Source of the DNA: Paucisalibacillus globulus
GTDB lineage: Bacteria; Bacillota; Bacilli; Bacillales; Amphibacillaceae
NCBI RefSeq assembly: GCF_900184735.1
Contig: NZ_LT855393.1
Span: forward strand, 235,844 to 299,843
DNA: 64,000 bases
Reading direction: 5' to 3'
The notes under the pieces are model-generated. The model had not been told where the DNA came from, did no database searches, and was given only the letters and a program-made list of their open reading frames with translations. The translations under genes were made by a program, and so were the position numbers. Shown one piece after another: positions 2,225 to 54,866 of the stretch (position 1 is the stretch's first letter; every line of letters starts with the position of its first letter).

Positions 2225-2465
2225 AATGAGGTTGGGACAAAAAAGTTTTAGTTAAAAAACCCGAACAAACATGATAAGCGCATGGACCCGCTCCGGAAAT
2301 ATACTACGCTTTCCACGGGCGGCTGGTGAGCCTCCTCAGAGCTAAAGCTCTTGCGGGGTCTCACCGATGCCTATCCTCCCGTAGGAGTCTCCGTATATTT
2401 CCGGAGCTGATTATCACATCGTTCAGTTTTATAACGTAAACTTATATCTATGTCCCAACCTCATT
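2225..2465. repeat. modular intergenic palindromic repeat, copy 1 (intact, short form)
   Basis: A 241-bp element begins with AATGAGGTTGGGACA (2225-2239) and ends with its exact reverse complement (2451-2465). A second perfect 15-bp inverted pair lies inside: GCTCCGGAAATATAC (2290-2304) and GTATATTTCCGGAGC (2393-2407). The core holds a further fold-back, GGTGAG...AGAGCT/AGCTCT...CTCACC. Related copies occur at six other loci in this window. It sits between the convergent acsA and sleL/yaaH genes and may terminate both. It encodes no convincing protein. Confidence 0.85.
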
Positions 2466-2478
2466 AAATGTTATTCAC

Positions 2479-3771
2479 TCAACTCGATTTCTTCACAATA
2501 TTAAAGTTATCCTGCAATAGTAACCAGTTCTGTGGAAATGCTAGCCCTAATTTCCAATAACTAATTCCAAGTAATCCAAGTTCCTTAATCAAATCAAACT
2601 TAGCTTGTATCGAGCGTGCATCTTCAAACCAAACTTCATGTTGTCGCCCTTCTGCATCCGTATAACGGAAAAATGGTGCCTGGGCTGTCGTATCATATTG
2701 AATCGGTACATTATGTTCACGAGCAAGTGCAATAGCTTGTTGTGGGCTTACGGCACGTGCATACTCTCCACCTGGAACAAATGGTAAGGTCCAGTCATAG
2801 CCATATAGATTTTGACCTAATAAAATCTTATTAGCCGGCATTTCTGTAAGGGCGTATTCCACAACTCGTCGAACCTGATCAATTGGGGAAACTGCCATAG
2901 CAGGACCACCACTATAACCCCATTCATACGTCATCAGGACCACCATGTCATCGACGGCACCATGTGCACCATAATCATGTGCTTCATACCATTCCCCTTC
3001 TTGAGTAGCACTAACTTTAGGTGCAAGTGCACTAGACATTAATAGGCCCTGTGCAGATAATCTATCCTTCGCTTTACTCAAGAAAGAACTATAAGCATCT
3101 CGGTCTTCCGGTGGTAAAAATTCAAAGTCAAAATGGACATCGGTAAAACCAACTTGCCCTGCTGTATTCACAATGTTATCTAGTAGCCTATTCTGCACTT
3201 CTTGTACGGTAACTACAATATGACCTAATTCCGCACTAAAGGCTCCTTCTTCCAGTGTGGTCACAACCATCATTAAATTAGCATTGTTGGCATCGGCAAT
3301 TTCTTTGAAATTATTAAGTGGTGGGGCAGCCAAGCTTCCGTCTCGGTTTACTTGATAACTAAAAGGTGCAAGGTAGGTTAGATAAGGAGTATTTTTACGT
3401 GCGGCATTTTCTAAAGCTTCAGAAACGGTACCCCCGGTAGGTTCAATGTAAGCATTGGAAACGATATCCCGCTTTTGACCCTGGGGAATATATAACCGTA
3501 ACCCTACATTGAGGGGGGTGTTGACTGGAATATTATTAATTCTTGCAAGTTCTTGATAAGACAAACCAAATTGTGCTGCGATTGAAAATAAACTATCGCC
3601 AGGTTGAACAAAATAAAAGCGCCCAACAATTGGAATAACCAATGCTTGCCCAACGACAAGCTGATTTGGGGCATCTAATTCATTTGCATTTATTAAGGCA
3701 TCCACGGTTGTACCGTATGTACCAGCAATGGAAAATACAGAATCACCCTGCGCGACTACATGAATTTGCAT
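2479..3771 (-). CDS. sleL: spore peptidoglycan hydrolase, LysM x2 + GH18 (SleL/YaaH)
   Basis: Cortex-lytic N-acetylglucosaminidase family acting on spore cortex during germination. Two LysM cell-wall-binding repeats occupy about residues 1-47 and 50-96, each with the (A/P)GDSxFSIA signature. A glycoside hydrolase 18 barrel follows to residue 430, with the DxxDxE-type catalytic motif seen as DVHFDFE near residues 210-217. I chose the start at 3771 (430 residues, the family length) because AAGGAGGGAGAAT directly precedes that ATG; the nine-residue extension upstream has no ribosome site. In B. subtilis yaaH is transcribed in the mother cell and is followed by yaaI, the same arrangement as here in mirror image. 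No signal peptide is visible, as expected for a protein assembled into the spore coat. Confidence 0.9.
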   Translation of the reverse strand: MQIHVVAQGDSVFSIAGTYGTTVDALINANELDAPNQLVVGQALVIPIVGRFYFVQPGDSLFSIAAQFGLSYQELARINNIPVNTPLNVGLRLYIPQGQKRDIVSNAYIEPTGGTVSEALENAARKNTPYLTYLAPFSYQVNRDGSLAAPPLNNFKEIADANNANLMMVVTTLEEGAFSAELGHIVVTVQEVQNRLLDNIVNTAGQVGFTDVHFDFEFLPPEDRDAYSSFLSKAKDRLSAQGLLMSSALAPKVSATQEGEWYEAHDYGAHGAVDDMVVLMTYEWGYSGGPAMAVSPIDQVRRVVEYALTEMPANKILLGQNLYGYDWTLPFVPGGEYARAVSPQQAIALAREHNVPIQYDTTAQAPFFRYTDAEGRQHEVWFEDARSIQAKFDLIKELGLLGISYWKLGLAFPQNWLLLQDNFNIVKKSS

Positions 3772-3861
3772 ATTCTCCCTCCTTAAGATCATATCCAAGT
3801 CGAAACTTGAACGAATGTCTCTATATACAAATTTATGAAGGGAGCATGTACGTTATGTCGA

Positions 3862-4398
3862 TTAAATAGGGGCAATATCGGCTTTCATAACGGACTTCAT
3901 TAAATATAGTGCATAGTCATTCCCATCCTTTTCTTCAGATGCCATACAATTCTTGGGAATATGCATCGTAAAGTTGTACATATAAGCGTCCTTTGCAGTA
4001 AATAGAACACAAATATCACCTGCAATTCCTGCTAGGATAATTTTTGTAATTCGTAATTCATCTAACAGTGCCTTTAGTGGTGTTTGAAAAAATGCAGAAT
4101 GCTGTGGTTTAATGAAAAAGTAATCGTTAGCTGATGGTTTTATTTGCTTAATAATATGGTGATTTTTTTCATTGGTACAATGTTGTACAATGGATGGAAT
4201 ATCGGAAGTCCATAAATGATAATGATCATTAACATAAATAATTGGAAGTTGATGTGTTTCGGCAATATGTCGTAGTTTGAGTAGATTTGGTAGGATTTCT
4301 TCCGTGTGAGAGCGTAATTTATCGCCTCCATCAAATTGGAAATCATTAATTAAATCGATGAAAATAATGGCGGTACCAGCATATTGATTCTCCAACAA
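3862..4398 (-). CDS. yaaI: isochorismatase-family hydrolase YaaI
   Basis: A cysteine-hydrolase fold protein of 178 residues. Visible are the N-terminal strand with the conserved acid (IIFIDLINDFQ) and the GIAGDICVLFTA segment, which carries the non-proline cis-peptide region and the probable nucleophile cysteine near residue 131. The physiological substrate of YaaI is not known to me; relatives hydrolyse isochorismate or amides such as nicotinamide. The start is uncertain. A GTG at 4407 overlaps the AAGGAGGTG ribosome site, whereas the TTG at 4398 is six bases beyond it, so I prefer TTG. The gene lies between sleL/yaaH (same strand) and tadA (divergent), as in B. subtilis. Confidence 0.82.
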   Translation of the reverse strand: MLENQYAGTAIIFIDLINDFQFDGGDKLRSHTEEILPNLLKLRHIAETHQLPIIYVNDHYHLWTSDIPSIVQHCTNEKNHHIIKQIKPSANDYFFIKPQHSAFFQTPLKALLDELRITKIILAGIAGDICVLFTAKDAYMYNFTMHIPKNCMASEEKDGNDYALYLMKSVMKADIAPI

Positions 4399-4451
4399 GA
4401 TGTCCACCTCCTTAACACTATGAGTTAGTAGTATTGATAAAATAAAAATAG

Positions 4452-4937
<486 letters not shown>

Positions 4938-4965
4938 CTTCCAAATATTATCTCCGGCCAGTCCA

Positions 4966-4993
4966 TTGATTTTTTCCCATAAGATGTTATAAT
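4966..4993 (+). promoter_or_regulatory. sigma-A promoter of the SRP RNA gene
   Basis: TTGATT (4966-4971) and a consensus TATAAT (4988-4993) are separated by 16 bases and end seven bases before the expected 5' end of the SRP RNA. Confidence 0.65.
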
Positions 4994-4999
4994 GGATAT

Positions 5000-5270
5000 T
5001 ACCGTGCTAGGCGGGGAGGTAGCGGTGCCCTGTACTCGCAATCCGCTATAGCGAGGCTGAATTCCCATCACGAGGTGGATGTCCGTATGGTCTGCCTCAA
5101 GGGATTGGTGTTGACGTTTAGGTCCTGCGCAACAGAGACCCACGAACCCTGTCAGGTCCGGAAGGAAGCAGCAGTAAGTGGTTATCTCTGTGTGCCGCAG
5201 GGTCACCTAAACCGAGCCATGAACTTGAGTAACGCATGGGGACATTTCATCGACGGTGGGTGCACGGCTT
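5000..5270 (+). ncRNA. ffs: signal recognition particle RNA, large (Alu-containing) type
   Basis: The RNA scaffold of the signal recognition particle, which binds Ffh and targets nascent membrane proteins. Recognised by the Alu-domain 5' region (GTGCTAGGCGGGGAGGTAGC, 5004-5023) and the universally conserved S-domain tetraloop and internal loop (GTCAGGTCCGGAAGGAAGCA, 5152-5171). The closing 3' arm is GGTGCACGG at about 5258. The length of about 270 nt is that of Bacillus scRNA, and the location between tadA and dnaX matches B. subtilis scr. The ends are estimated to within a few bases. Confidence 0.95.
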
Positions 5271-5284
5271 ACATACTCAATTGG

Positions 5285-5319
5285 AAACCTCTTGTTTTGA
5301 TACAAGAGGTTTTGTTTTA
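5285..5319 (+). terminator. rho-independent terminator after SRP RNA
   Basis: AAACCTCTTG (5285-5294) pairs with CAAGAGGTTT (5303-5312) around a short loop, followed by a T-rich run. Confidence 0.85.
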
Positions 5320-5448
5320 TCATGTTATTCCCTCTTCAGAAGATTGGAATTTTACTATTTTTGCACACAGACAGTAGTCTCCTTTAAACATCCTAATCCG
5401 TAATAAGAATACTCCCATACATATTCCAGATTTTCTTTTTCATTATCA

Positions 5449-5477
5449 TTCACATTCGAACTTAAAATCGGTATAAT
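5449..5477 (+). promoter_or_regulatory. sigma-A promoter for the dnaX operon
   Basis: TTCACA (5449-5454), a 17-base spacer and consensus TATAAT (5472-5477) end 29 bases before the dnaX start. The stretch 5320-5448 is AT-rich and shows nothing else. Confidence 0.55.
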
Positions 5478-5506
5478 TAGATAGAAATCAATGAGGGGAA
5501 TCAATT

Positions 5507-7192
5507 ATGAGCTATCAAGCATTGTATCGCACATGGCGTCCGAGAACGTTTGAGGATGTTGTAGGGCAAAGTCATATAACACGAACACTCCAAAATGCAA
5601 TTGTTCAGGAAAAATTTTCACATGCATATTTGTTTACTGGTCCACGCGGAACCGGTAAAACAAGTGCTGCCAAAATTTTTGCTCAAACTATTAACTGTGA
5701 ACATGCTCCGGTCAAAGAACCATGTAATGAGTGTGCTGCTTGCATTGGTATTCGGGACGGATCCATTTCGGATGTTATCGAAATTGATGCTGCGTCTAAT
5801 ACTAGTGTTGATGATATACGTGAGATTCGTGAAAATGTTAAATACGCTTCTAGTTCCGTGCCGTATAAAGTTTACATTATTGACGAGGTCCATATGATTT
5901 CTGTGAATGCATTTAACGCATTACTGAAAACATTAGAAGAACCTCCTAAACATGTAGTATTTATCCTGGCTACGACAGAGCCACATAAAATACCGTTAAC
6001 GATTATTTCTCGTTGTCAACGATTCGACTTTAAACCAATTCCTAACCAAGCAATTGTAGAGCGGATGCAAACTATTGTTGAAGCAGAAAGTGTTTCCGTA
6101 GCGAAGGAAGCCTTTGATGCGGTAGCATTAGCTGCAGAAGGTGGAATGCGTGATGCTCTTAGTATTCTAGATCAAGCGATATCCTATAGTGAAGCAAGTG
6201 TTGAACTGGAGGATGTTCTTGCTGTTACCGGTGGAGTTTCTCAAAAAATTCTCACGGATATGGTTGCATCCATGCACCAGAAAGATGTTCAATCTGCATT
6301 AAAAATGCTTGATCAATTGATTCAAAATGGTAAAGATCCAGCACGATTTGTCTATGATATCATTTATTTCTTACGTGATTTATTGCTATATAAGAGCGCA
6401 CCTTCCTTAGAAGGGATTCTAGAGAGGGCCATTATTGATGATGCCTTTCAGCAGTTAGCATCGAATGTTCCAGAAACCTGGATTCAACATGCGATTATGC
6501 AATTAAATCAATGTCAGCAAGAAATGAAATGGTCTAACAATCCAAAGGTATTTATAGAGATTGCCATTATTACCATTTCCAATCGATATGAAGATACACC
6601 TCAAGCATCGGATTCCGTATCCTCAGAAGCAGTCATGCAATTAACACAGAAATTAGCACATCTCGAGAAAGAAATTGCTAATTTAAAACAAATACCTACC
6701 GGGGGCGTGCAAGCACCTCAGCCGGAAAAGAAAAGACAAACAGCTACGAAATCCAAAAATAGTTACAAGATTCCTTATGAGCGAATCCGTAATGTGCTAA
6801 AAGAAGCACAAAAGCAATCACTCAAGGATGTACAATCACAGTGGGCTAATTTCCTTAGCAAACTGAAGTCAACAAGTGCTCCAGCACATGCAACCATTCA
6901 GGATGCAAAACCTGCTGCAGCATCAGATTCATCACTTGTTGTAGCATTTAAATATGAAATCCATTGTTCGCTTTTCATGGATAACCGTGAATTAGTAGAA
7001 TCTATCTTAACAGGTATTCTAAATAAACCATTAACCATTATTCCGATTCCGAATCAGGATTGGCAAGAACTTCGGAATGAATATGTAAAAAGTCAAGAGC
7101 CATCTAGTTCAGGAGAACAAGCAAGTGGAGATCCTGTAGTAGAAGAAGCAAGAAAGCTTTTTGGGGATGACTTGATTGAAATACATGACTAA
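5507..7192 (+). CDS. dnaX: DNA polymerase III subunits gamma/tau
   Basis: Clamp-loader ATPase that, with HolA and HolB, loads the beta clamp and couples the polymerase to the helicase. N-terminal AAA+ domain: Walker A GPRGTGKT (about 45-52), a zinc module with cysteines around residues 64-79, Walker B IIDEVHM (about 124-130) and the SRC arginine finger (about 168). The C-terminal part (about 375 onward) begins with a coiled coil and continues as the variable tau tail. Length 561 matches B. subtilis (563). I see no poly-A slippery site of the E. coli type, so a separate gamma product is not predicted. The start ATG follows GAGGGGAA. It begins the dnaX-yaaK-recR-yaaL operon. Confidence 0.96.
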   Translation: MSYQALYRTWRPRTFEDVVGQSHITRTLQNAIVQEKFSHAYLFTGPRGTGKTSAAKIFAQTINCEHAPVKEPCNECAACIGIRDGSISDVIEIDAASNTSVDDIREIRENVKYASSSVPYKVYIIDEVHMISVNAFNALLKTLEEPPKHVVFILATTEPHKIPLTIISRCQRFDFKPIPNQAIVERMQTIVEAESVSVAKEAFDAVALAAEGGMRDALSILDQAISYSEASVELEDVLAVTGGVSQKILTDMVASMHQKDVQSALKMLDQLIQNGKDPARFVYDIIYFLRDLLLYKSAPSLEGILERAIIDDAFQQLASNVPETWIQHAIMQLNQCQQEMKWSNNPKVFIEIAIITISNRYEDTPQASDSVSSEAVMQLTQKLAHLEKEIANLKQIPTGGVQAPQPEKKRQTATKSKNSYKIPYERIRNVLKEAQKQSLKDVQSQWANFLSKLKSTSAPAHATIQDAKPAAASDSSLVVAFKYEIHCSLFMDNRELVESILTGILNKPLTIIPIPNQDWQELRNEYVKSQEPSSSGEQASGDPVVEEARKLFGDDLIEIHD

Positions 7193-7222
7193 AATTACCT
7201 AAATTTAAAGGAGGCGTTTTCC

Positions 7223-7543
7223 ATGAAAGGTATGGGAAATATGGGCAATATGATGAAACAAATGCAAAAAATGCAAAAGAAAATGATGCAAGCGCAAGAT
7301 GAATTATTCGAAATGGAATTTGAAGCATCTGCAGGTGGCGGTATGGTAACCGTTAAAGCTAATGGAAAGAAAGAAATTATCGATGTAGAAATTAAAGAAG
7401 AAGTTGTGGATCCAGATGATATTGAAATGCTACAAGATCTAATCCTTGCGGCAACTAATGATGTTCTAAAGCAAGTTGATGATAAAACAAATGCAACAAT
7501 GGGGCAATTTACAAAAGGATTGAACATGCCAGGAATGTTCTAA
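7223..7543 (+). CDS. yaaK: YbaB/EbfC-family nucleoid-associated protein
   Basis: Small DNA-binding protein (106 residues) encoded between dnaX and recR in most Firmicutes. The N-terminal third is a Met/Gln/Lys-rich helix ([15 protein letters not shown], about 11-25). It is followed by the family's beta region [18 protein letters not shown] and a helical C-terminus. Family members bind DNA as dimers; a precise role for YaaK is unsettled. The ATG follows AAAGGAGG, 30 bases after dnaX. A short repeat remnant (7547-7575) lies between this gene and recR. Confidence 0.92.
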
Positions 7544-7546
7544 TTT

Positions 7547-7575
7547 GTCTAGCTTCAGGCACCTTATGCATTTCT
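7547..7575 (+). repeat. collapsed copy of the GTCTAGCTTCAGGCACC element
   Basis: GTCTAGCTTCAGGCACC (7547-7563) is joined directly to TTATGCATTTCT (7564-7575). At 11515-11717 the same 17-base start and a near-identical end (TTACGCATTTCT) are separated by about 170 bases. This copy therefore looks like the two ends with the middle removed. It lies between the yaaK stop codon and the recR ribosome site. Confidence 0.7.
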
Positions 7576-7590
7576 TAGGGGGAAGACATC

Positions 7591-8187: not shown

Positions 8188-8202
8188 AGTCGGGTGACAT
8201 CA

Positions 8203-8427: not shown

Positions 8428-8430
8428 AGG

Positions 8431-8467
8431 AAACACCTACAATTAATTTTGTAGGTGTTTTTATTTT
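8431..8467 (+). terminator. terminator of the dnaX-yaaL operon
   Basis: AAACACCTACAA (8431-8442) pairs with TTGTAGGTGTTT (8449-8460), followed by T-rich sequence. Confidence 0.88.
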
Positions 8468-9673: not shown

Positions 9674-9717
9674 TGTTATGATATTTTTAGACTATTTTGG
9701 TATAGTTTGGTACTACT

Positions 9718-10009
9718 GATAGAAACTGTGCGGCTATTTATTAAATTGGGGGAGCATCATTCCCGCTACGGAAATACACTCCGCTTTTACTGCCAGCACA
9801 GGGGCGACATCTGTTCGAAAAGACCTCACAGTGTCTGCCTTGCCGCGGGCGGCTGGTGAGCCTCCTCAGAGCTGAAGCTCCTGCGGGAAAAGCACGTGTC
9901 CGAAGACCCCGCAGAGGTGAACTTTCCTCGAGGAGGCTGAGGCCGGGCCCGCGGAAAGCGGAGTATTCTGCCGGAGCGGTATCATCATATCTTATATTGT
10001 TACCACACA
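9718..10009. repeat. modular intergenic palindromic repeat, copy 2 (long, hybrid core)
   Basis: Starts with GATAGAAACTGTGCGG (9718) and ends near GTTACCACAC (9999-10008), a degraded inverted match. Inside, CCGCTACGGAAATACACTCCGC opens the element and GCGGAGTATTCTGCCGGAGCGG closes it; the arms pair only partly. The core holds the optional block containing CACAGGGGCGACATCTG (9798 on), then the first half of the GGTGAGCCTCCTCAGAGCT core fused to the AAGCACGTGTCCGAAGACCCC core. The GC-rich block stands out from its AT-rich surroundings. It lies between csfB and the yaaO-type gene. Confidence 0.82.
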
Positions 10010-10101
10010 TTTACCTTTTACTATCCGTTAGATTAAACTAAATGGAGAATACAATCTTCTAGAAAACAAACTATTTATTAGCTTTGGAGAGGAAATTTAA
10101 C

Positions 10102-11520
10102 ATGGATCACTATAAAAAGCCGTTATTAAAACGGATTATCGAATTTACTAAAGAAAATTCTATTTCATTTCATGTTCCAGGACATAAAAATGGTGCTGTT
10201 TTTTTAGAAGCAGCAAAGCCATATTTTGAGTCTATCTTACCTATTGATGTAACAGAATTGACTGGTTTAGATGATTTACATGCACCACAAGAAGCGATAA
10301 AAGAGGCACAGGATTTAGCAGCAGATTATTTTGGAGCAGAGCACACATTTTTCTTGGTTGGTGGTAGTACAGCTGGAAACTTGGCTATGATATTATCCGT
10401 ATGTAATCCTGGAGATACCATCATTGTTCAACGTAATAGCCATAAATCCATTATGAATGGATTGGAATTAAGTGGGGCAAAGCCAATTTTTATCAGTCCA
10501 GAGTTTGATGAAACTGTTCATCGCTACACGGCTCCAAGTTACGAAACGGTGGAACAAGCTATTGTAAGCCATCCAAATGCAAAGGCTTTAGTATTAACCT
10601 ATCCAGACTACTTTGGGAAAACCTACGATATCAGGAGGACCATTGATTTAGCACATCAATATCAAATTCCTGTGTTAGTAGATGAGGCACATGGTGTTCA
10701 CTTTTCCATTGGTGAACCATTTCCAAAGTCTGCTATTTACTTAGGAGCAGATATTGTCGTACAATCAGCGCATAAGATGGCTCCAGCAATGACAATGGCA
10801 TCCCTATTACATGTAAACTCTAAACTTATTTCTAAAGATGATGTAGCTCATTATTTACAAATACTACAGTCAAGCAGCCCATCCTATCCACTGATGGCAT
10901 CATTGGATGTCGCAAGATCCTATTTGGCAACACTTTCTAAAGAGGAACTAGATGCGATTTTAAAAAGTGTGATGAGCTTTAGAAGTGTGCTGGAGCAGGG
11001 AGAGCATTGGCAAGTTCTTCCGACCGATGATCCATTAAAAATAACACTACAGGTTAACAATAGGTTATCTGGATTTGAAGTAGCAGATTTTTTTGAGGCT
11101 CATCATGTGTATCCAGAACTAGCAACGGATAAACAAGTTTTATTCATTCATGGATTAAAGGTATTTAAAGAAACAGAGCAAATTGGAAATATCGTGAAAA
11201 GCTTCAAGGAAGAATATAAATATCTCCTAAATCATGCTACAATAGAGGTAAGTAACTTATTTAAAGAGCCTTTATCACAATTAGCAATAAGCTATCACGA
11301 TATGTTCAAGCTTCCTAGAAAAAGGGTGCAATTGGAGGAAGCGGTCGGATACGTTGCTGCAGAAGCGGTTATCCCTTATCCGCCAGGTATTCCTGTTATG
11401 TTAAAAGGGGAACGTGTAACAGAAGAACAAATTAGGCTAATTCAGCATTTAATAAAGCAAGGCGCAACAATTCAACACCAGGATATTAAACAAGGCATCC
11501 AGGTTTTTGTTGGTGTCTAG
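10102..11520 (+). CDS. yaaO: PLP-dependent Orn/Lys/Arg decarboxylase, YaaO family
   Basis: Fold-type I pyridoxal-phosphate decarboxylase of the major ornithine/lysine/arginine family, 472 residues against 480 for B. subtilis YaaO. Visible are the N-terminal FHVPGHKNG block (about 22-30), VDEAHGVHF (about 199-207) with the cofactor-binding aspartate, SAHKMAPAMTM with the PLP lysine at 225, and the C-terminal YPPGIPVM substrate-site motif. The true substrate of YaaO-type enzymes is not settled by sequence; arginine, lysine or ornithine are all possible. The ATG at 10102 follows GGAGAGGAAATTTAAC; a TTG at 10084 is too early. The stop codon TAG lies inside the first bases of the repeat at 11515. 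Confidence 0.9.
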   Translation: MDHYKKPLLKRIIEFTKENSISFHVPGHKNGAVFLEAAKPYFESILPIDVTELTGLDDLHAPQEAIKEAQDLAADYFGAEHTFFLVGGSTAGNLAMILSVCNPGDTIIVQRNSHKSIMNGLELSGAKPIFISPEFDETVHRYTAPSYETVEQAIVSHPNAKALVLTYPDYFGKTYDIRRTIDLAHQYQIPVLVDEAHGVHFSIGEPFPKSAIYLGADIVVQSAHKMAPAMTMASLLHVNSKLISKDDVAHYLQILQSSSPSYPLMASLDVARSYLATLSKEELDAILKSVMSFRSVLEQGEHWQVLPTDDPLKITLQVNNRLSGFEVADFFEAHHVYPELATDKQVLFIHGLKVFKETEQIGNIVKSFKEEYKYLLNHATIEVSNLFKEPLSQLAISYHDMFKLPRKRVQLEEAVGYVAAEAVIPYPPGIPVMLKGERVTEEQIRLIQHLIKQGATIQHQDIKQGIQVFVGV

Positions 11521-11717
11521 CTTCAGGCACCAGCGACTAGCGAGACTTCCCTCACCTCCGTGCGATAAGTCAACATCGACTTAAGTATTAAAGGAAGGTC
11601 GACTAAAACCGGCCATTGCGGCCAACGTCGACATACCCCTATGAAGGGGCATGTTTCCTTTATCTCCTACGGCTCAGTCCAGTCCGTACGTCGCAAACTG
11701 TTGCCTTACGCATTTCT
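11515..11717 (+). repeat. structured intergenic element, GTCTAGCTTCAGGCACC type, full copy
   Basis: Begins GTCTAGCTTCAGGCACC, overlapping the yaaO stop codon, and ends CTTACGCATTTCT just before the tmk ribosome site. Several hairpins are visible: AAGTC/GACTT (about 11566-11582), GTCGAC...CCGGCC attgc GGCC...GTCGAC (about 11598-11632), CCCCT/AGGGG (about 11636-11649), and AAAGGAA pairing with TTCCTTT around the latter two. Similar sequences after stop codons in other Bacillaceae are familiar to me, but I know no function for them. Confidence 0.75.
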
Positions 11718-11737: not shown

Positions 11738-12717
<980 letters not shown>

Positions 12718-20698: not shown

Positions 20699-21012
20699 TT
20701 GTTGCACTGAGCGATCCGAATACACGGAGACTCCTTGAAAAAGAAAAGCACTTTTTCTGCGTGCGATGTTTCGCTGACGAAGCCTTCCTTGTCCTGCGGG
20801 AGAATAGGCTTCGGTGAGACCCCGCAGTGCGAAATAGGGGTTCAAAGGCTAAAAACGCCTCATCCTGAGGCAACGCCTTTGTGACCAACATCCTGTTGGC
20901 CCGAGGCTCACCAGCCGCCCGCGGCAAGGTAGACACTGCGACGGTTCTTTCGAGCAGATGTCGCCCCTGTGCTGACAGTAAAAGCGGAGTGTATTCGGAT
21001 CGCGGTTAACAA
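20699..21012. repeat. modular intergenic palindromic repeat, copy 3 (long form)
   Basis: Perfect 15-bp inverted arms GCGATCCGAATACAC (20711-20725) and GTGTATTCGGATCGC (20989-21003) enclose the core, with ATTGTT/AACAAT outside them. The core holds the GGTGAGACCCCGCAGTGCG half, extra sequence with its own small hairpins (AAAGGC...GCCTTT; CCAACATCCTGTTGG), and the optional CAGCACAGGGGCGACATCTG-type block in reverse (about 20930-20985). This copy has the most internal additions. It lies between metG and tatD. Confidence 0.85.
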
Positions 21013-21092: not shown

Positions 21093-21863
21093 ATGTTATT
21101 CGACACACACGTACACCTCAACGCTGAACAATTCAAACAAGACCGAGAAGAAGTAATCAAACGCGCCTTTGACACAGGAGTAAAATACATGACCGTTGTC
21201 GGATTCGATCGAGAAACAATCCCCCTCGCCATCGAAATTGCCGAACAACACGATACTATTTATGCAGCGGTAGGCTGGCATCCAGTAGATGCAATCGACA
21301 TGACAGACGAAGATCTAGAGTGGATTGAAGAGCTATCCAGTCATCCAAAAGTAGTTGCCATTGGCGAAATGGGTCTCGATTATCATTGGGATAAATCTCC
21401 TAAAGATATTCAGAAAGAAGTATTCCGAAAGCAAATTCGATTGGCCAAAAAAGTGAACATGCCAATCATCATTCATAATCGTGAAGCAACCGAGGATATT
21501 ATCGAGATTCTACAGGAAGAAGATGCAAAAGAAGTTGGAGGAATTATGCATTGTTATAATGACTCTGCAAAATATGTCCAAACCTGTCTAGATATGAACT
21601 TTTATATATCACTAGGGGGTCCTGTAACATTTAAAAATGCCCATCTACCTAAAGAGGTCGCAGTAGAAGTTCCATTAGAACGACTTCTTGTTGAAACAGA
21701 TGCTCCTTTTTTAGCTCCACATCCAAATAGAGGGAAACGCAATGAGCCTGCCTATGTAAAATTAGTAGCAGAAAAGATTGCAGAATTACGAGAGATTTCT
21801 TTAGAAGAATTGAGTGAAAAAACAACCGAAAATGCTCTCAAATTATTTAACATTAACCAGTGA
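21093..21863 (+). CDS. tatD: TatD-family metal-dependent hydrolase
   Basis: Amidohydrolase-fold nuclease of 256 residues (B. subtilis YabD 255). Metal-binding residues are seen as HVHLN (6-10), GEMGLDYHW (about 92-100), IIHNREA (about 127-133), MHCYND (about 151-156) and VETDAPFLAPHP (about 202-213). Relatives show DNase activity. The ATG follows AGAAAGGAC. The first 200 bases use unusual codons compared with the rest, matching the pattern at the end of metG on the other side of the repeat. The gene order metG-tatD-yabE is conserved. Confidence 0.92.
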   Translation: MLFDTHVHLNAEQFKQDREEVIKRAFDTGVKYMTVVGFDRETIPLAIEIAEQHDTIYAAVGWHPVDAIDMTDEDLEWIEELSSHPKVVAIGEMGLDYHWDKSPKDIQKEVFRKQIRLAKKVNMPIIIHNREATEDIIEILQEEDAKEVGGIMHCYNDSAKYVQTCLDMNFYISLGGPVTFKNAHLPKEVAVEVPLERLLVETDAPFLAPHPNRGKRNEPAYVKLVAEKIAELREISLEELSEKTTENALKLFNINQ

Positions 21864-38670: not shown

Positions 38671-38822
38671 GATAGGAAACGGTGCGGTAACTAGTTTAAT
38701 TACAAATGAATTAGTTATGGGGTATAGCTGTACGTCACCGCCCCGGCAGAATACTCCGCGGAGTGTATTTCCGTAGCGGGATGTTGCTCCCAATCATAAA
38801 TATTAGCCACGCTGTTTCTATC
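38671..38822. repeat. modular intergenic palindromic repeat, copy 4 (ends only, no core)
   Basis: Starts GATAGGAAACGGTGCGGTAA (38671) and ends GCTGTTTCTATC (38811-38822), an inverted match to the start. In the centre, GGCAGAATACTCC and GGAGTGTATTTCCGTAGCGGG, the two end types of larger copies, are joined at CTCCGCGGAG with all core modules missing. It lies between spoVT and yabM. Confidence 0.78.
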
Positions 38823-44080: not shown

Positions 44081-44115
44081 ACAGCTACTCATAATGAGTA
44101 GCTGTTTTTTTATTT
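44081..44115 (+). terminator. terminator of yabR
   Basis: ACAGCTACTC (44081-44090) and GAGTAGCTGT (44096-44105) form a 10-bp stem with a T run. Confidence 0.9.
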
Positions 44116-44151
44116 CTCACGATTTATATTAAGAAACCGATGTGCACGGTT

Positions 44152-44646
44152 GATAGGAAACTGTGTGATAACTAGTTCAAATACTATTAGTTAATGGTTA
44201 TAGCGGTGTGATACCGCTCCGGCAGAATACTCCGCTTTTACTGTCAGTACAGGGGCGACATCTGCTCAGATCAAGACCGTCTCAGTGTCTACCTTGCCGC
44301 GGGCACGGCCTCAGCCTCCTTCCTCGAGGAAAGTTCGCCTCTCTAGTCTAGGGGTCTTCAGACACGTGCTATTTCCGTAGGAGTCTCGGTATTCTGCCTA
44401 CGCTGGTATTGATTTTCTAATTCAAGTTAGGAGTTATGTTCTGTTTTTTATTGATATGTTCTAAAATTTATTCGCTCAATACTAGCGAAGGAAATACACG
44501 GAGACTCCTGCGGGAGGATAGGCATCGGTGAGACCCCGCAAGAGCTTTAGCTCTGAGGAGGCTCACCAGCCGCCCGCGGAAAGCGGAGTGTATTTCCGTA
44601 GCGGGTATGGTGCTCTACCCAAAATGCTTAGTTAGAGTAGTTTCTC
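44152..44646. repeat. modular intergenic palindromic repeat, copies 5 and 6 (compound, two cassettes)
   Basis: One envelope starts GATAGGAAACTGTGTG (44152) and ends near GTAGTTTCTC (44646). The first cassette (44214-44410) carries the optional CAGGGGCGACATCTG block and the CGGCCTCAGCCTCCT...GACACGTGC core. The second (44482-44605) carries the GGTGAGACCCC...AGAGCTTTAGCTCT...GGCTCACC core in the opposite orientation. CCTACGCTGGTATT and ACTAGCGAAGG flank the middle. It lies between yabR and the tRNA terminator. Confidence 0.82.
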
Positions 44647-44667
44647 TTAAATATAATCCTGAAAAAC

Positions 44668-44706
44668 AAAAAAAGCTTGTTATCCAAAATAGATAACAAG
44701 CTTTTT
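44668..44706 (-). terminator. terminator of tRNA-Met
   Basis: AAAAGCTTGTTATC (44671-44684) and GATAACAAGCTTTT (44692-44705) form a 14-bp stem; on the - strand it ends in T residues. Confidence 0.85.
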
Positions 44707-44712
44707 GTCTGA

Positions 44713-44786
44713 TAGCGGCGGAGGGGATCGAACCCACGACCTCACGGGTATGAACCGTACGCTCTCGCCAGCTGAGCTACGCCGCC
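44713..44786 (-). tRNA. tRNA-Met (CAU), elongator type
   Basis: A 74-nt cloverleaf on the - strand. It has acceptor GGCGGCG/CGCCGCT, D stem GCTC/GAGC, anticodon loop TTCATAC with CAT, and T loop TTCGATC. The opening G1-U72 and D-loop resemble the elongator tRNA-Met of B. subtilis, which also sits between yabR and spoIIE. The 3' CCA is not encoded. The T stem (GTGGG/CCCTC) contains a U50-U64 mismatch where B. subtilis has, as I recall, G50-U64. Confidence 0.95.
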
Positions 44787-44828
44787 ATATGATAATGTGA
44801 CTACTCATTTCTTTAGCCAACAAAAATC

Positions 44829-44857
44829 ATAATACAATAGGAAACAAATTGTGTCAA
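44829..44857 (-). promoter_or_regulatory. sigma-A promoter of tRNA-Met
   Basis: On the - strand, consensus TTGACA (44857-44852), a 17-base spacer and TATTAT (44834-44829), about 40 bases upstream of the tRNA. Confidence 0.65.
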
Positions 44858-44931
44858 TATCTTTTATGAAAAAGGATATATTCAGATTTAATAGAATATA
44901 TAATTATACTCAAAAAAGAAGGTGATAAATA

Positions 44932-45390
44932 GTGAAAAAGCGCCATGAAGCCTTATTTAATCAACTTGAAACCTATCGAGGTGAAACTCTTGCATTAGTT
45001 GAAAAAATTACAGAGGAAGAAGCGGAGAGAATTCCAAAAGGGTTTAACAATAACATTAGATGGAATTTAGGGCATATCTATCTGGATCAATATTTATGGA
45101 TTGAAGCTGTAATCAAGGAAAAGTCAGACCAGACACAAATGTTGAACCAGTGGTTTGGTTTTGGAACAAGCCCAACGAATTTTAATAAAAGTACACCTAG
45201 TTTTACAGTGTTAAAGGAGTTACTGCGTAGCCAACCTATGCAAATAAAAGAAAAATATGGAGACCATCTAGAAAAAGAATTTCAGCCAACGGAAATGGGG
45301 ATGCATACCATAGAGCAGGTACTAATCCGTACCATATATCATGAAGGACTACATGCAGCTGCAATTCAGTATTTAAAAAGATTTATGTAG
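44932..45390 (+). CDS. DinB-family protein
   Basis: Four-helix-bundle protein of 152 residues from the DinB/YfiT-like superfamily. The metal-binding histidines are visible as WNLGHIYLDQ (His near residue 46) and YHEGLHAAAI (HxxxH near 138-142). Members include bacillithiol transferases and other thiol S-transferases; the substrate of this one cannot be told. The GTG start follows AAGAAGGTGATAAATA. The gene is not in the B. subtilis tRNA-spoIIE interval. Its stop codon overlaps the beginning of the next repeat. Confidence 0.85.
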   Translation: MKKRHEALFNQLETYRGETLALVEKITEEEAERIPKGFNNNIRWNLGHIYLDQYLWIEAVIKEKSDQTQMLNQWFGFGTSPTNFNKSTPSFTVLKELLRSQPMQIKEKYGDHLEKEFQPTEMGMHTIEQVLIRTIYHEGLHAAAIQYLKRFM

Positions 45391-45642
45391 AGGTTGGGAC
45401 ATAAAAGTTAAAGATAAAAAAACCTGAACGTAATGCCACATCAGCTCCGGAAATATACGGAGACTCCTACGGGAAGATAGGCATCGGTGAGACCCCGCAA
45501 GAGCTTTAGCTCTGAGGACGCTCACCAGCCGCCCGTGGCAAGGTAGACACTGTGAGGTACTCTCGAACAGATGTCGTCCCTGTGCTGACAGTAAAAGCAT
45601 AGTATATTTCCGGAGCGGGTCTATGCGCTCATCTTTTGTTTA
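45390..45642. repeat. modular intergenic palindromic repeat, copy 7 (inverted relative to copy 1)
   Basis: GAGGTTGGGACA (45390-45401) overlaps the end of the DinB-family gene. Inner arms GCTCCGGAAATATAC (45444-45458) and GTATATTTCCGGAGC (45602-45616) are perfect and identical to those of copy 1. The left flank matches the reverse complement of the copy 1 right flank, and CGGGTCTATGCGCTCATC matches the reverse of its left flank; the outer right arm is lost. The core includes the optional CAGGGACGACATCTG-type block. Confidence 0.85.
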
Positions 45643-45771
45643 AAGAAATAATTTCTATAAGTAATACCACTTCTTGAAACTCTCATTTTTACCCCACGCG
45701 ACCTTCTCTGACAAAAAGAATACACTTTCCTACAGATTATGTAGAAACTCCAACCACATACTAGATTTCAG

Positions 45772-50122: not shown

Positions 50123-50183
50123 TAGCTCTATGGTTCTGTGATAAAATAAAGAGGTAATCAGTAATTAAGAGGGTGGACATTTA

Positions 50184-51569
50184 GTGAAGGATGTTGTGAC
50201 AGATTTTATTGAAAAGCATCAACTATTATTACCGGGTAAAACCGTCCTAGTAGCAGTATCAGGTGGCCCAGATTCCATGGCTCTCCTACATTTTTTAAAG
50301 TCCATTCAAATGGAATGGAACATTAGGGTGATTGCTCTCTCGGTTGATCATCAATTAAGAGGAGAGGAAAGCAGAGCGGACCTCAATTTTGTAGAGAGAA
50401 TCTGCCAAGAGTGGAGTATAGAATTTGTTGGGACATCTGTTGATGTGGAAGGTCATAAGAAGAATAATCAAATTGGAACACAGAGAGCTGCAAGAGAACT
50501 CCGATACCGTTTTTTTGCAGAACAAATGAAGTATTTTCAAGCTGATTACCTTGCCTTTGGTCATCATGGTGACGATCAAGCGGAAACGATGTTGATGAAA
50601 TTAGTTCGTTCAGGTGATTCTAGTTCCTTCTCCGGTATACCCGTAAAGAGAGAATTTGCCGGTGGGAAAATTATACGACCATTTTTATGTGTGACAAAGG
50701 GAGAGCTAGAGAATTATTGTGAGGCTCACGGCATTGTTCCAAGAATGGATCCTTCTAATGAAAGTGTGGACTATACTCGTAATTTCTACCGAATAAAAGT
50801 ACTCCCCTTGTTAAAAAGTAAAAACGGTAACCTACATAAAACGATCCAACATCTAAGTGAATCACTGGAAGCGGATGAAGAGTTTCTTCAATTGGAAGCA
50901 AAAAAGATGTTTAAGGAAGTCGTTCATACAGAAGAAAATCCATTAAGAGCTTCGTTTAAAATTGATGACTTTGTATCACGTGCATCTGCTTTACAAAGGC
51001 GTGTCTATCATCTAATATTAAACTATCTATATTACAATGATTTACCTAAGGATTTATCCTATGTCCACGAGGAACAATTACTATCGTTATTGGCCAAAAA
51101 TAAACGTAATGTACAAATTGATTTTCCCCGTCATTTAAAGGTAGAAAAAGCATATAATAAACTTATCTTTTATTTCCAAGAACTAGAGAAAAACCCCCTT
51201 AATTTCCATGAGGTGTTAAACGTACCAGGAGAAGTATTATTACCAAATGGTAAAAAAATAATCGCTACATATCAACATGAAATCACGAGAATGGATAATC
51301 ATACATATATATGTTTGGAAAGTGAATTGGTACTCCCATTACATATTCGAACACGGCGTGATGGTGATCGGATGAGCTGGAAGGGGTTAAATGGAAGTAA
51401 GAAGTTGAAAGATATTTTTATCGATGCAAAAATACCCTTACAAGATAGGAATAGTTGGCCAGTTGTAACGGATAATAATGGGGATATACTTTGGCTTGTT
51501 GGATTAAAGAAACGAGATCCAATACCAAACCAAAAAAGTTCCTCATATATACAGCTTTATTATGAATAA
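50184..51569 (+). CDS. tilS: tRNA(Ile)-lysidine synthase
   Basis: Adds lysine to C34 of tRNA-Ile2(CAU), an essential decoding change. The 461 residues contain the PP-loop AVSGGPDSM (24-32), an HxLRGEES motif (about 57-64), and a C-terminal domain ending with the LKKRDPIPNQ stretch. The GTG start follows GAGGGTGGAC. It precedes hpt by 23 bases; the tilS-hpt-ftsH order is highly conserved. Confidence 0.95.
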   Translation: MKDVVTDFIEKHQLLLPGKTVLVAVSGGPDSMALLHFLKSIQMEWNIRVIALSVDHQLRGEESRADLNFVERICQEWSIEFVGTSVDVEGHKKNNQIGTQRAARELRYRFFAEQMKYFQADYLAFGHHGDDQAETMLMKLVRSGDSSSFSGIPVKREFAGGKIIRPFLCVTKGELENYCEAHGIVPRMDPSNESVDYTRNFYRIKVLPLLKSKNGNLHKTIQHLSESLEADEEFLQLEAKKMFKEVVHTEENPLRASFKIDDFVSRASALQRRVYHLILNYLYYNDLPKDLSYVHEEQLLSLLAKNKRNVQIDFPRHLKVEKAYNKLIFYFQELEKNPLNFHEVLNVPGEVLLPNGKKIIATYQHEITRMDNHTYICLESELVLPLHIRTRRDGDRMSWKGLNGSKKLKDIFIDAKIPLQDRNSWPVVTDNNGDILWLVGLKKRDPIPNQKSSSYIQLYYE

Positions 51570-51592
51570 GGTAATTTGTAGGAGGGTTTTAT

Positions 51593-52141
51593 TTGCATAA
51601 CGAAATTAAGAAAGTACTCATCACAGAAGAAGAGATCGCAGCAAAGTGCAAGGAAATCGGGGAAAAACTGACACAGGAATATGAAGGACGCTTTCCGTTA
51701 GCAATCGGTGTATTAAAAGGCGCATTGCCATTTATGTCCGATGTATTAAGACAAGTACATACCCATTTGGAAATGGATTTTATGGATGTTTCAAGTTACG
51801 GTGGTACCAATACTAAATCTTCAGGGGAAGTAAAAATACTGAAAGACCTAAATACGAAGGTAGAAGGTCGTGATTTATTAATTATTGAGGATATAATTGA
51901 TAGTGGTAATACGTTACGTTATTTAGTTGATTTATTTAAATATCGCCAAGCAAACTCAATCAAAATTGTTACGTTACTTGATAAGCCAACTGGTCGCACA
52001 GCTGATATTAAGGCGGATCTAGTAGGATTTGAAGTGCCAGATGAATTTGTTGTAGGATATGGGCTAGACTATGATGAAAAGTACCGTAATTTACCGTACA
52101 TCGGTGTCCTAAAGCCAGAAATTTATGGTGGAGAAGAATAA
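51593..52141 (+). CDS. hpt: hypoxanthine-guanine phosphoribosyltransferase
   Basis: Salvages hypoxanthine and guanine with PRPP. The 182 residues (B. subtilis HprT 180) show [11 protein letters not shown] (about 99-109), the PRPP-binding loop, and the conserved [21 protein letters not shown] segment (about residues 144-164). The start is TTG, with an excellent TAGGAGGG ribosome site eight bases before it. In B. subtilis HprT also helps activate ftsH transcription with TilS. Confidence 0.95.
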
Positions 52142-52186
52142 TAACATAATATGGAAACATTTGTCCCAATTGCAGGGAGCAATTAG

Positions 52187-52216
52187 TTGAAAAATTTAAA
52201 TTTTATATGATACTAT
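52187..52216 (+). promoter_or_regulatory. candidate sigma-A promoter of ftsH
   Basis: TTGAAA (52187-52192), an 18-base spacer and TACTAT (52211-52216), about 37 bases before ftsH. Confidence 0.42.
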
Positions 52217-52252
52217 TGTTAATAGTTTTTCCCGTTTGGGAGGAGGTAGGCA

Positions 52253-54235
52253 ATGAACCGAGTATTTAAGAGTGCGTTTTTTTACTTAATCATATTTTTG
52301 GTTATTATAGCCGTAATTAGTTTGTTAAGTGGTCAGAATGAACAAGCTGAAGAGATGAATGTTAATAAGTTTGTTGAATCACTTAATGCAGGCGATATCC
52401 AAGAAATGACGATGCAGCCTGTAAATGGAATTATGCGTATAACAGGTAAACTAAAAGATGACAAACAATTTGTCGCACAAGTTCCTGAGAATAATGATGT
52501 AATTGCTGATATTACAGAAACAGCATTAGAACAAAGTGTTTTAAAAACGAAACCAATGGATCAACCTAGTATCTGGGTTACGCTTCTTACAACCATGATT
52601 CCGTTTTTAATCATTGGACTTTTATTTTTCTTCTTACTTAGTCAAGCACAAGGTGGCGGCGGTGGCCGTGTCATGAACTTTGGTAAAAGTAAGGCGAAAA
52701 TGTATAGTGAAGAAAAGAAAAAAGTTCGCTTTACAGATGTAGCAGGAGCAGATGAGGAGAAACAGGAATTAGTGGAAGTAGTAGAGTTCCTGAAAGACCC
52801 ACGTAAATTCTCTGCTATTGGAGCGAGAATTCCAAAAGGGGTTCTATTAGTTGGACCTCCAGGTACTGGTAAGACATTACTTGCACGTGCTGTTGCTGGT
52901 GAGGCAGGAGTACCATTCTTCTCCATCAGTGGTTCAGACTTTGTGGAGATGTTTGTCGGTGTTGGTGCTTCACGTGTACGTGATTTATTTGAAAATGCAA
53001 AGAAAAACGCACCATGTATTATATTTATCGATGAAATTGATGCAGTAGGTCGTCAGCGTGGTGCTGGTCTTGGTGGTGGACACGATGAGCGTGAGCAAAC
53101 ACTAAACCAGTTACTAGTTGAGATGGATGGTTTTGGAGCAAATGAAGGTATCATTATTATAGCTGCAACCAACCGCCCAGATATCTTAGACCCAGCACTT
53201 CTTCGTCCAGGACGTTTTGACAGACAGATTACGGTTGATCGTCCAGATGTAAAAGGTCGTCAAGAGGTTCTAAAGGTTCACGCAAGAAACAAACCGCTAG
53301 GTCCTTCTGTTGACTTGAAGACAATTGCAATGCGCACACCTGGGTTCTCAGGTGCAGACTTAGAAAACCTTCTGAATGAAGCAGCACTTGTTGCAGCCCG
53401 TCGAGATAAGAAGGAAATAGACATGTTAGATGTAGATGAAGCTATTGACCGTGTCATCGCTGGTCCTGCTAAGAAGAACAGAGTGGTGTCCGAGAAAGAA
53501 CGTAATATCGTGGCATATCATGAAAGCGGACATACGATTATTGGTATGGTACTTGATGATGCTGATATCGTTCATAAGGTAACGATTGTTCCTCGTGGGC
53601 AAGCTGGTGGATATGCTGTTATGCTTCCAAAAGAAGACCGTTACTTCATGACTAAACCAGAACTATTCGATAAAATTACAGGCCTTTTAGGTGGTCGTGT
53701 AGCTGAAGAAATTGTCTTTGGTGAAGTAAGTACTGGCGCATCTAATGACTTCCAACGCGCTACAGGTATCGCACGTAAAATGATTACCGAGTATGGTATG
53801 AGTGATAAACTTGGACCTCTACAATATAGTAGTGGTGGCGGAGAAGTCTTCCTTGGAAGAGATATTAATAACGAACAGAATTATAGTGATGCAATTGCTC
53901 ATGACATTGATCAAGAAATGCAAAACTTTATTAATCATTGTTATGACCGCGCAAAAACTATCCTTACAGAGAACCGCGATAAGCTAGAACTAATCGCTCA
54001 AACACTTCTAGAAGTCGAGACATTAGATGCAAGACAAATCAAGTCTCTATTTGAAGATGGTGTTCTTCCAGAACCAGAAGATTATGAGGAAGAAACAGCA
54101 GATAAGGACGTTAAAGTTAACATTACCTCTAAAAAGGACGATGATTCTGTAGATTCTTTTGAAGAAGCGAAAGAGAAAGCAAATGAAAAGCTTCAAAAAG
54201 AAATCGAAGAAGACCAAGAAGGTAAGAACGACTAA
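52253..54235 (+). CDS. ftsH: ATP-dependent zinc metalloprotease FtsH
   Basis: Membrane-bound AAA+ protease that degrades misfolded membrane proteins and regulators, needed for sporulation entry in B. subtilis. The 660 residues (B. subtilis 637) have two transmembrane helices (about 5-24 and 104-126), Walker A GPPGTGKT (201-208), Walker [10 protein letters not shown], the second region of homology RPGRFDRQI, and the zinc site HESGH (423-427). The C-terminal tail is strongly acidic and lysine-rich. The ATG follows GGGAGGAGGTAGGC. Confidence 0.97.
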
Positions 54236-54247
54236 TCTAATTAAAAC

Positions 54248-54280
54248 AAGGCAGCCTTAACATTAAAGGCTGCCTTTTCT
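54248..54280 (+). terminator. terminator of ftsH
   Basis: AAGGCAGCCTT (54248-54258) and AAGGCTGCCTT (54266-54276) form the stem with TTTTCTG after it. Confidence 0.88.
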
Positions 54281-54460
54281 GTTCCATTCAGATTTGTAAT
54301 TTCACTTACGAAAATGATTTTGGTATATTATTAAAGACTCAGGTTATTTTTTGGTTGTATCTTTAGACAATATTGTTGATTATGCAGACCTTGGGCAACC
54401 TAGGTAGTAATGAATTAGATTTTCAAGTTTTACTGTTTTCTCAATGTTAATTACATAATT

Positions 54461-54866
54461 GATAGAAACTGTGCGGTAACTACTACCAATTTACATTCTT
54501 TAAAGAATGCTGTGCTAGGATACCGCTGCGGCAGAATACTCCGCTTTCCGCGGGCGGCTGGTGAGCCTCCTCGCGCTTACGCACTGCGGGGTCTCACCGA
54601 TGCCTATCCTCCCGCAGGAGTCTCCGTATTCTGCCTACGCTAGTATTCGTTTCTATACAAATATTTTTTTATAATTTAATGTAAAAAAATAACACACTAT
54701 GCTAGCGCAGGAAATACACGGAGACTCCTACGGGAATAGCGCGTGTCCGAAGACCCCTAGAGAGGTGGTCTTCCCTCGAGGAGGCTGAGGCCGTGCCCGT
54801 GGAAAGCGGAGTGTATTTCCGTAGCGGGTATGTTGCACCCAAAATAAAATATTTACCGCACTGTTA
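54461..54866. repeat. modular intergenic palindromic repeat, copies 8 and 9 (compound, two cassettes)
   Basis: One envelope, from GATAGAAACTGTGCGGTAAC (54461) to its inverted match TTTACCGCACTGTTAC (54851-54866). The first cassette (about 54524-54645) has the GGTGAGCC...GGTCTCACC core in short form. The second (about 54703-54830) has the GCGTGTCCGAAGACCCC...TGAGGCCGTGCCC core. The middle is marked by CCTACGCTAG (54635-54644) and CTAGCGCAGG (54702-54711). Apart from this compound element and the ftsH terminator, I see nothing in the 713-base gap before coaX. Confidence 0.85.

What the first reader, a model, noticed from the sequence alone, without database searches (positions are those of the whole stretch)
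2225..54866. A modular, mosaic palindromic repeat family fills seven intergenic loci
Loci 2225-2465, 9718-10009, 20699-21012, 38671-38822, 44152-44646, 45390-45642 and 54461-54866 share a GC-rich core in an AT-rich genome. The pieces recombine as modules. Core type i has GGTGAGCC..AGAGCT/AGCTCT..GGTCTCACC. Core type ii has CGGCCTCAGCCTCC..GTCTTC.GACACGTGC. An optional block of about 65 bases carries CAGGGGCGACATCTG and CAGTGTCTACCTTGC, and replaces a short TTTCC link. The 9718 copy is a hybrid of cores i and ii. None has a transposase. I recall similar sequences in other Bacillaceae, but no assigned function. The mosaic plan suggests a non-autonomous mobile element or a structured RNA that exchanges modules by recombination.
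Basis: partly seen in the sequence, partly recalled or inferred. Interest (0 to 1): 0.72.

Follow-up and report, generated by a model that had tools for sequence, protein, structure and literature searches.

The report
Modular hairpin-carrying mini-transposons of Bacillaceae
Short gene-less DNA repeats that fill gaps between genes here, and recur in nearly all sampled relatives of this bacterium, have ends like those of a known bacterial transposon family and carry plug-in hairpin modules, one of them listed in Rfam as an RNA of unknown function; they were likely spread by that transposon family's enzyme.

Summary
All seven loci are real and belong to a genome-wide family (at least 142 core-i arm matches; 167 inner-repeat hits against 7 for a reversed control). 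A full element has outer ends (GGCTGTTTTC...), an inner inverted repeat (GAAACTGTGCGGTAA), and two inverted hairpin arms around an AT-rich spacer. Modules M1, M2 and M3 plug into fixed slots of the arms; M3 is Rfam RF01690 'Bacillaceae-1 RNA'. The outer ends resemble the left and right ends of an intact 1,466-bp insertion sequence with an IS1595-type transposase (PF12762) and an exact 8-bp target duplication, in another genus. Of 19 elements from other genera with both ends recognisable, 9 have 8-bp flanks matching at 7 or 8 positions; no one of 5,000 shuffles reaches the mean. Window element 9690-10071 has such ends, flanks matching 6/8, and an empty orthologous site in a congener. So these are non-autonomous, IS1595-like mini-transposons (MITEs) with modular cargo. 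Strand-specific RNA selection is not supported (G-U 81, A-C 76 mismatches). Arms occur in 113 of 120 genomes of the host's family. Open: what the arms do, the engine of copies with other ends (2225, 20699, 45390), and whether any copy still moves; this genome has no PF12762 match.

The parts
2225..2465 (-). Element e1: outer inverted repeat AATGAGGTTGGGACA/TGTCCCAACCTCATT and one core-i arm (2280-2409, minus strand). It stands where two congeners have a small hairpin after the upstream gene.
9682..9689 (.). Left flank TATTTTTA of e2, candidate 8-bp target duplication (6/8 with the right flank)
9690..10071 (+). Element e2: B-type end left, A-type end right, inner repeats 9722-9736 and 10000-10014, M1 (9799-9839), fused arm i/arm ii. 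G001 has 3 nt in place of 391 nt here.
10072..10079 (.). Right flank TATTTATT of e2, candidate 8-bp target duplication
20699..21012 (+). Element e3: single core-i arm with M2 (from 20737), M3 and M1 (20928-20969); ends of the GAGCG.../...CGCGG type, engine unknown
20833..20899 (+). Module M3 = Rfam RF01690 Bacillaceae-1, 70.4 bits, at the apex of the e3 arm
38671..38822 (.). Element e4: inner inverted repeats with collapsed arm bases, no core
44152..44646 (+). Element e5: arm ii with M1 (44206-44405, minus; M1 44250-44293), AT-rich spacer, arm i (44483-44612, plus). Other copies stand in this slot in G001 and G007; none in G003 and G010.
45390..45642 (+). Element e6: GAGGTTGGGACA end on the left only, core-i arm with M1 (45442-45626; M1 45542-45582)
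54461..54911 (.). Element e7: inner repeats 54465-54479 and 54853-54867, arm i (54515-54642, minus) and arm ii (54703-54835, plus) with apices swapped against the genome's usual order; decayed B-like end to 54911. G007 holds a differently composed copy in this slot.

Best explanation
These loci are copies of a gene-less mini-transposon family whose outer ends resemble those of an IS1595-type insertion sequence, likely moved in trans by that kind of transposase, and whose interior is a pair of hairpin arms with plug-in modules. Shown in the sequence: outer ends of two kinds (B and A) like the left and right ends of an intact IS with a PF12762 transposase; an excess of matching 8-bp flanks; presence/absence between congeners; fixed slots for M1, M2 and M3; compensated base pairs across genera. 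Inferred: a transposase encoded elsewhere bound the outer ends, cut, and inserted the element into AT-rich intergenic DNA, and copies between divergent genes were lost by selection. Inferred: the arms are kept as DNA palindromes (cruciform or single-stranded hairpin) and not as one oriented RNA; modules come and go by recombination at short words shared by the junctions. This genome has no PF12762 match, so its copies are predicted to be immobile now. Copies with GAGGTTGGGACA or GAGCG/CGCGG ends (e1, e3, e6) share the arms but not these ends, and their vehicle is unidentified.
For: Ends: GGCTGTTTTC-like words outside the inner repeat of 38 elements, 34 sense against 4 antisense hits, with 12 at 31-34 nt and 5 at 56-59 nt. 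Parent: L274, 1,466 bp, PF12762-type ORF of 344 aa stop to stop, ends GGCTGTTTTCGTATAGATTGTTGCTT and GGCTGTTTTCTCAAAGATTGTTGTTT, exact duplication TTAATGAA; 12 elements match these ends at 11-24 and 16-25 of 26 positions, and in 11 of 12 the fit with one end of each kind beats the swapped fit, 1 tie. Duplications: 19 elements from other genera, 9 with at least 7/8, 3 exact, mean 5.21 against 3.32 in shuffles, 0 of 5,000 reach it; 8 elements of the host genus, 5.5 against 3.53, 1 of 2,000. IS1595-family ISApl4 makes AT-rich 8-bp repeats and has ends GGGGCTGTACTAGA (PMC12561309, passages). Empty site of e2; 14 element gaps against G001: 6 own only, 6 G001 only, 2 both. Slots. DNA-level constraint. 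Placement: 38 own elements, 27 tandem, 10 convergent, 0 divergent, 1 edge, 0 inside an ORF, against 121/24/32 background gaps (Fisher p 0.0019).
Against: The parent rests on one complete copy, in another genus; it shares only the outer ends, not the inner repeat or arms. No PF12762 match in the own genome, and only 2 of 11 congeners have one, one of them broken; close relatives of the transposase are in 14 of 146 family genomes, while arms are in 113 of 120. 10 of 19 elements have flanks matching 6/8 or less; the other 87 of 106 arms showed no pair of ends; random places showed one in 51 of 2,000. The two IS ends resemble each other, so the A/B assignment gains only 1 to 7 positions. e1, e3 and e6 have other ends; e4, e5 and e7 have decayed ends. 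The plus strand folds better in 75 of 101 copies, which leans to RNA. The tRNA control for one search is small and crude (13 tRNAs, 5 G-U, 0 A-C, 17 other mismatches).
Confidence: 0.8

Rival explanations
1. Structured RNA: the arms are a transcribed regulatory or small RNA kept for its fold, with Bacillaceae-1 as one domain; mobility is secondary.
For: Compensated pairs and invariant unpaired bases across genera; RNA fold z -4.9; plus strand more stable in 75 of 101 copies; RF01690 was proposed as an RNA (PMC2864571, passage).
Against: G-U and A-C helix mismatches equal: 81/76 in other genera, 28/29 and 17/17 in own arms. Most own elements hold two arms of opposite sense. No clear orientation to genes: 34 co-directional, 24 opposed, 13 convergent, 10 divergent, 23 at an edge, 2 inside an ORF of 106.
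Confidence: 0.15
2. REPIN/BIME-like repeats moved by a RAYT (Y1 transposase): two inverted hairpins around a spacer.
For: Two-hairpin inverted architecture in intergenic gaps; the genome has a RAYT-like gene (L114) and an IS200-like gene (L113).
Against: No arm, inner-repeat or core motif within the 3.3 kb around either gene; by eye L114 is flanked by another hairpin (GGGGAGTGACAGGCACCCC). 8-bp duplications are not expected of Y1 enzymes (recalled).
Confidence: 0.05
3. Copies with GAGGTTGGGACA ends (e1, e6) moved by replacing a target hairpin, as described for IS1272.
For: e1 stands where G007 has CCTCCAGCGTTTTTTGCTGGAGG and G010 a like hairpin; flanks of such copies continue the inverted repeat and are not direct repeats (by eye); hairpin replacement described in PMC5678879 (passages).
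Against: No transposase with such ends found; the one long pair of ends (L124, 2,068 bp) holds other ORFs. Only one locus shows replacement. No alignment of IS1272 ends was made.
Confidence: 0.3
4. Elaborate intrinsic terminators spread by local recombination, not by transposition.
For: No own element of 38 lies between divergent genes; e1 replaces a hairpin after a gene.
Against: 27 of 38 lie between tandem genes; presence/absence between congeners; 8-bp duplications; ends shared with an IS.
Confidence: 0.05

Closest known systems
IS1595-family insertion sequences and MITEs derived from them
   Same: Outer ends like the IS in L274, GGCTGT as in ISApl4 ends, 8-bp AT-rich duplications, no transposase of its own
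   Different: The inner repeat and the two modular hairpin arms are not in the IS; the same arms also occur between other ends (e1, e3, e6)
Rfam RF01690 Bacillaceae-1 RNA
   Same: It is module M3: 13 of 13 over-threshold hits of this genome lie at an arm apex (by eye; one at a contig end shows one side only)
   Different: It covers 67 nt of the element; in other genera it also stands outside these arms
BOX elements and other modular repeats (recalled; not compared by sequence)
   Same: Intergenic, palindromic, built of optional modules
   Different: Other modules and host; here the outer ends point to an IS1595-type engine
REPIN/BIME with RAYT
   Same: Two inverted palindromes around a spacer, between genes
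   Different: Arms about 125-300 nt, 8-bp duplications, RAYT gene of this genome not flanked by the arms
bcr1 of the Bacillus cereus group
   Same: Short mobile-like repeat of a Bacillus group, listed among bacterial MITEs (PMC3733652, passage)
   Different: Its paper's title calls it specific to the B. cereus group (reference line only seen); no sequence comparison was made

Membership tests
MITE of the IS1595 family | No transposase gene inside | tested here: met
   No such ORF seen in the seven loci (by eye)
MITE of the IS1595 family | Terminal ends shared with an autonomous member | tested here: met
   For copies with A/B ends. Not met by e1, e3 and e6
MITE of the IS1595 family | 8-bp target duplication | tested here: met
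   As a statistical excess: 9 of 19 with at least 7/8, 8 host-genus elements; e2 has 6/8
MITE of the IS1595 family | Empty orthologous site | tested here: met
   e2 in G001; 12 of 14 listed gaps differ between own genome and G001
MITE of the IS1595 family | Transposase in the same genome | tested here: not met
   No PF12762 match in the own genome; this concerns present mobility, not descent
MITE of the IS1595 family | Mobilisation by the transposase | not testable with these tools
   Needs an experiment
REPIN/RAYT | RAYT gene flanked by the repeat | tested here: not met
   L113 and L114
Structured RNA (arms) | Strand preference for G-U over A-C in helices | tested here: not met
   81/76, 28/29, 17/17
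Structured RNA (arms) | Lower folding energy of one strand | tested here: inconclusive
   Plus strand lower in 75 of 101, mean -55.6 against -53.4 kcal/mol; copies are related, so the p value is not independent
Rfam RF01690 | Score over the gathering threshold | tested here: met
   Only for window 20833-20899; not for the arms as such
Inverted-repeat-replacing insertion (IS1272-like), for e1 | Target hairpin lost and no direct duplication | tested here: inconclusive
   two congeners with a hairpin; no enzyme found
BOX, bcr1 | Sequence of their modules | not tested
   No comparison made

The most novel reading that the evidence does not exclude
The hairpin modules are themselves mobile parasites of palindromes: M3 (Bacillaceae-1), and perhaps M1 and M2, move on their own into the apices and junctions of several unrelated mobile repeats, and next to 5S rRNA genes, so that Bacillaceae mini-transposons form a shared platform of nested, protein-free elements kept as DNA hairpins.
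Probability: 0.28. Interest if true: 0.85.

Novelty: new variant of a known kind. Interest (0 to 1): 0.62.

Why it matters
It gives a high-copy repeat of Bacillaceae genomes a likely engine and places an orphan Rfam family inside a mini-transposon. Two questions become testable: does an IS1595-type transposase move these elements, and do the conserved arms act as DNA hairpins? Annotation that calls each Bacillaceae-1 match a small RNA gene may be marking transposon cargo.

Tried and rejected
RAYT or IS200 as engine: genes present, no arm motifs around them. Strand-specific RNA: no G-U excess. Another Rfam family for the arms: in window 44100-45700 only sub-threshold matches, MIR2606 30.8 bits (threshold 139.7) and tsr24 21.2 bits (threshold 50). 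Phages: no match; plasmids: 4 records, 3 Priestia megaterium and 1 Bacillus badius. The transposase beside a B end in L260 has no matching second end, so it was taken as a lead; the complete IS came. Other IS1595-type genes with GGCTNTGTTAA-like words upstream (L280, L281, L282, L287) could not be closed at the second end. GAGGTTGGGACA ends as an IS: the L124 pair is accidental.

Papers: ten searches. Four core strings searched in full text gave 0 papers. None of the titles and abstracts listed describes this family. Passages only were seen of PMC2864571, PMC4333381, PMC2267715, PMC5678879, PMC12561309, PMC3733652 and PMC2229807. ISfinder and subscription papers were not searched, so a named entry there is possible.

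Rows dropped: strings with N and duplicates; searches use 98 of 106 matches (length 108-136), folds 101, one search uses 96. skips gaps of negative length in the relative, so e2 is not among its 14; its aligned chain covers own bases 101785-258244 of 264000. In one search the left flank of M2 passed in 23 of 31; the 8 failures, all shown, read GACTCC directly before the module, so the pattern was at fault. score only part of the candidates per genome (28, 45 and 22), so copy numbers are floors.
Full report
Observation. All seven loci are as described in kind, with corrected limits. A covariance model of core i (R1) has 12 matches in the window at E<=1 and at least 142 in the genome, 150 of 961 candidates scored. 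The inner inverted repeat GAAACTGTGCGGTAA (two mismatches) has 80 forward and 87 reverse hits against 7 and 0 for the pattern read backwards. The arm at 44483-44612 folds better than all 200 shuffles as DNA (z -4.4) and as RNA (z -4.9).

Anatomy. Reading genome copies with their flanks (30 loci, output partly cut) shows the whole element: outer end, inner inverted repeat, arm ii, AT-rich spacer, arm i in opposite sense, inner repeat, outer end. An arm has a basal stem, a junction with constant GACTCC and GGAAAGC, a stem with one bulged base (T 73, A 15, C 7, G 3 of 98 copies from other genera), a second stem and an apical hairpin. M2 enters after GACTCC, M1 enters on the opposite side, M3 takes the place of the apex. 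Slots: M1 23 of 23 on both sides; M2 31 of 31 on the right and 23 on the left by pattern; M3 11 of 11. GGCAGAATAC stems carry core ii (34 of 35) and GGAAATACAC stems core i (32 of 33 with a typed core); the two exceptions are the arms of e7. e2 is an arm-i/arm-ii fusion. Inside the same kind of ends, other cargo occurs: no arms (L261, L270) or tandem repeats (L271) (by eye).

Bacillaceae-1. RF01690 has 14 matches in the genome, 13 over the cut-off. All 13 sit at the apex of arms (by eye; L040 is cut by a contig end on one side). The 14th (window 11587-11649, 33.1 bits, under the cut-off) lies in another repeat. RF01690 occurs in 75 of 100 family genomes. Of 21 further loci (L229-L249), by eye 7 are in arms (L230, L231, L235, L237, L245, L246, L249), L248 is partly arm-like, L238 could not be placed, and 12 are elsewhere: in other palindromes, next to 5S rRNA sequence (L234, L247), or apparently within a gene (L232). 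In print its discoverers are unsure of the strand, and a CsrA link was proposed for the reverse complement (PMC4333381, passages; table row of PMC2864571).

Distribution. R1 at E<=1e-5: 113 of 120 genomes of the host's family and 44 of 46 genera; 26 of 151 genomes drawn from the class, own included. G007 is probably Paucisalibacillus sp. EB02, since contig lengths agree at 284,870 (inference).

Mobility. Six congeners were aligned to the window. e2: G001 has 3 nt where the window has 391; G007 holds a decayed remnant. e5: G003 has 11 nt and G010 80 nt without an element, G001 and G007 carry other copies, G005 a fragment. e7: no element in G001, G010 and G003, one of another type in G005, and in G007 a copy with another interior. 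Against G001, 14 element-bearing gaps were listed: 6 own only, 6 G001 only, 2 both. So copies come and go, and interiors differ within one slot.

Engine. Outside the inner repeat of 38 elements, GGCTGTTTTC-like words give 34 sense and 4 antisense hits, with 12 at 31-34 nt (B) and 5 at 56-59 nt (A). The B end, sought in 11 congeners, was found just upstream of an ORF with PF12762 and PF12760 in L260. Relatives of that protein occur in 14 of 146 family genomes. One, L274, is complete: 1,466 bp, left end like B, right end like A, exact duplication TTAATGAA. Other IS1595-type genes have GGCTNTGTTAA-like words upstream, resembling the outer ends of single-arm copies in Neobacillus, Metabacillus and others; no complete IS of that type could be closed. 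Duplications: 19 elements, 9 with at least 7/8, 3 exact, mean 5.21 against 3.32, 0 of 5,000 shuffles, 8 elements of the host genus, 5.5 against 3.53, 1 of 2,000. An armless own copy (L270) has TATTGTAA on both sides (by eye). ISApl4 of the IS1595 family makes AT-rich 8-bp repeats and has ends GGGGCTGTACTAGA (PMC12561309, passages). The own genome has no PF12762 match; 2 of 11 congeners have one.

DNA or RNA. Compensated pairs are common. Isolated helix mismatches are G-U 81 and A-C 76 in 96 copies from other genera, 28 and 29 in 28 own core-i arms, 17 and 17 in 18 own core-ii arms; 13 tRNAs gave 5 and 0, with 17 other mismatches, so the control is crude. This favours a palindrome kept as DNA. 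Against it, the plus strand folds better in 75 of 101 copies. Arms from other genera lie co-directional with both genes 34, opposed 24, convergent 13, divergent 10, at an edge 23, inside an ORF 2, of 106. The 38 own elements lie tandem 27, convergent 10, divergent 0, edge 1, inside an ORF 0, against 121, 24 and 32 background gaps (Fisher for divergent p 0.0019).

Limits. The parent IS rests on one complete copy. e1, e3 and e6 have other ends and no known engine; e4, e5 and e7 have decayed ends. The role of the arms is inferred. No expression or transposition data were available.

Noticed in passing
window 11515-11700: A second palindromic repeat (TGTCTAGCTTCAGGCACCAGCG...) with a weak RF01690 match (11587-11649, 33.1 bits, under cut-off) between two genes.
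   Followed up: partly
window 21575-21585 (minus strand): A lone AGGTTGGGACA word without a partner or arm.
   Followed up: no
L114 (G000:C22:319645-319974): RAYT-like PF01797 gene flanked by another hairpin (GGGGAGTGACAGGCACCCC), a candidate REP/RAYT pair of this genome.
   Followed up: no
L271 355-668; L258 from 1501: The same outer ends enclose tandem repeats (AACCATGTGCCCGCCCCA; GATTCAGGAAAACATG) in place of hairpin arms.
   Followed up: no
L234 and L247 around 1501-1567: Bacillaceae-1 modules next to 5S rRNA sequence, in L234 beside a partial second 5S copy.
   Followed up: no
G005, gap orthologous to window 44115-44665: Tandem repeat of about 49 bp (CTCTCGGACAAAAAGGTGAGAGAAATGG...).
   Followed up: no
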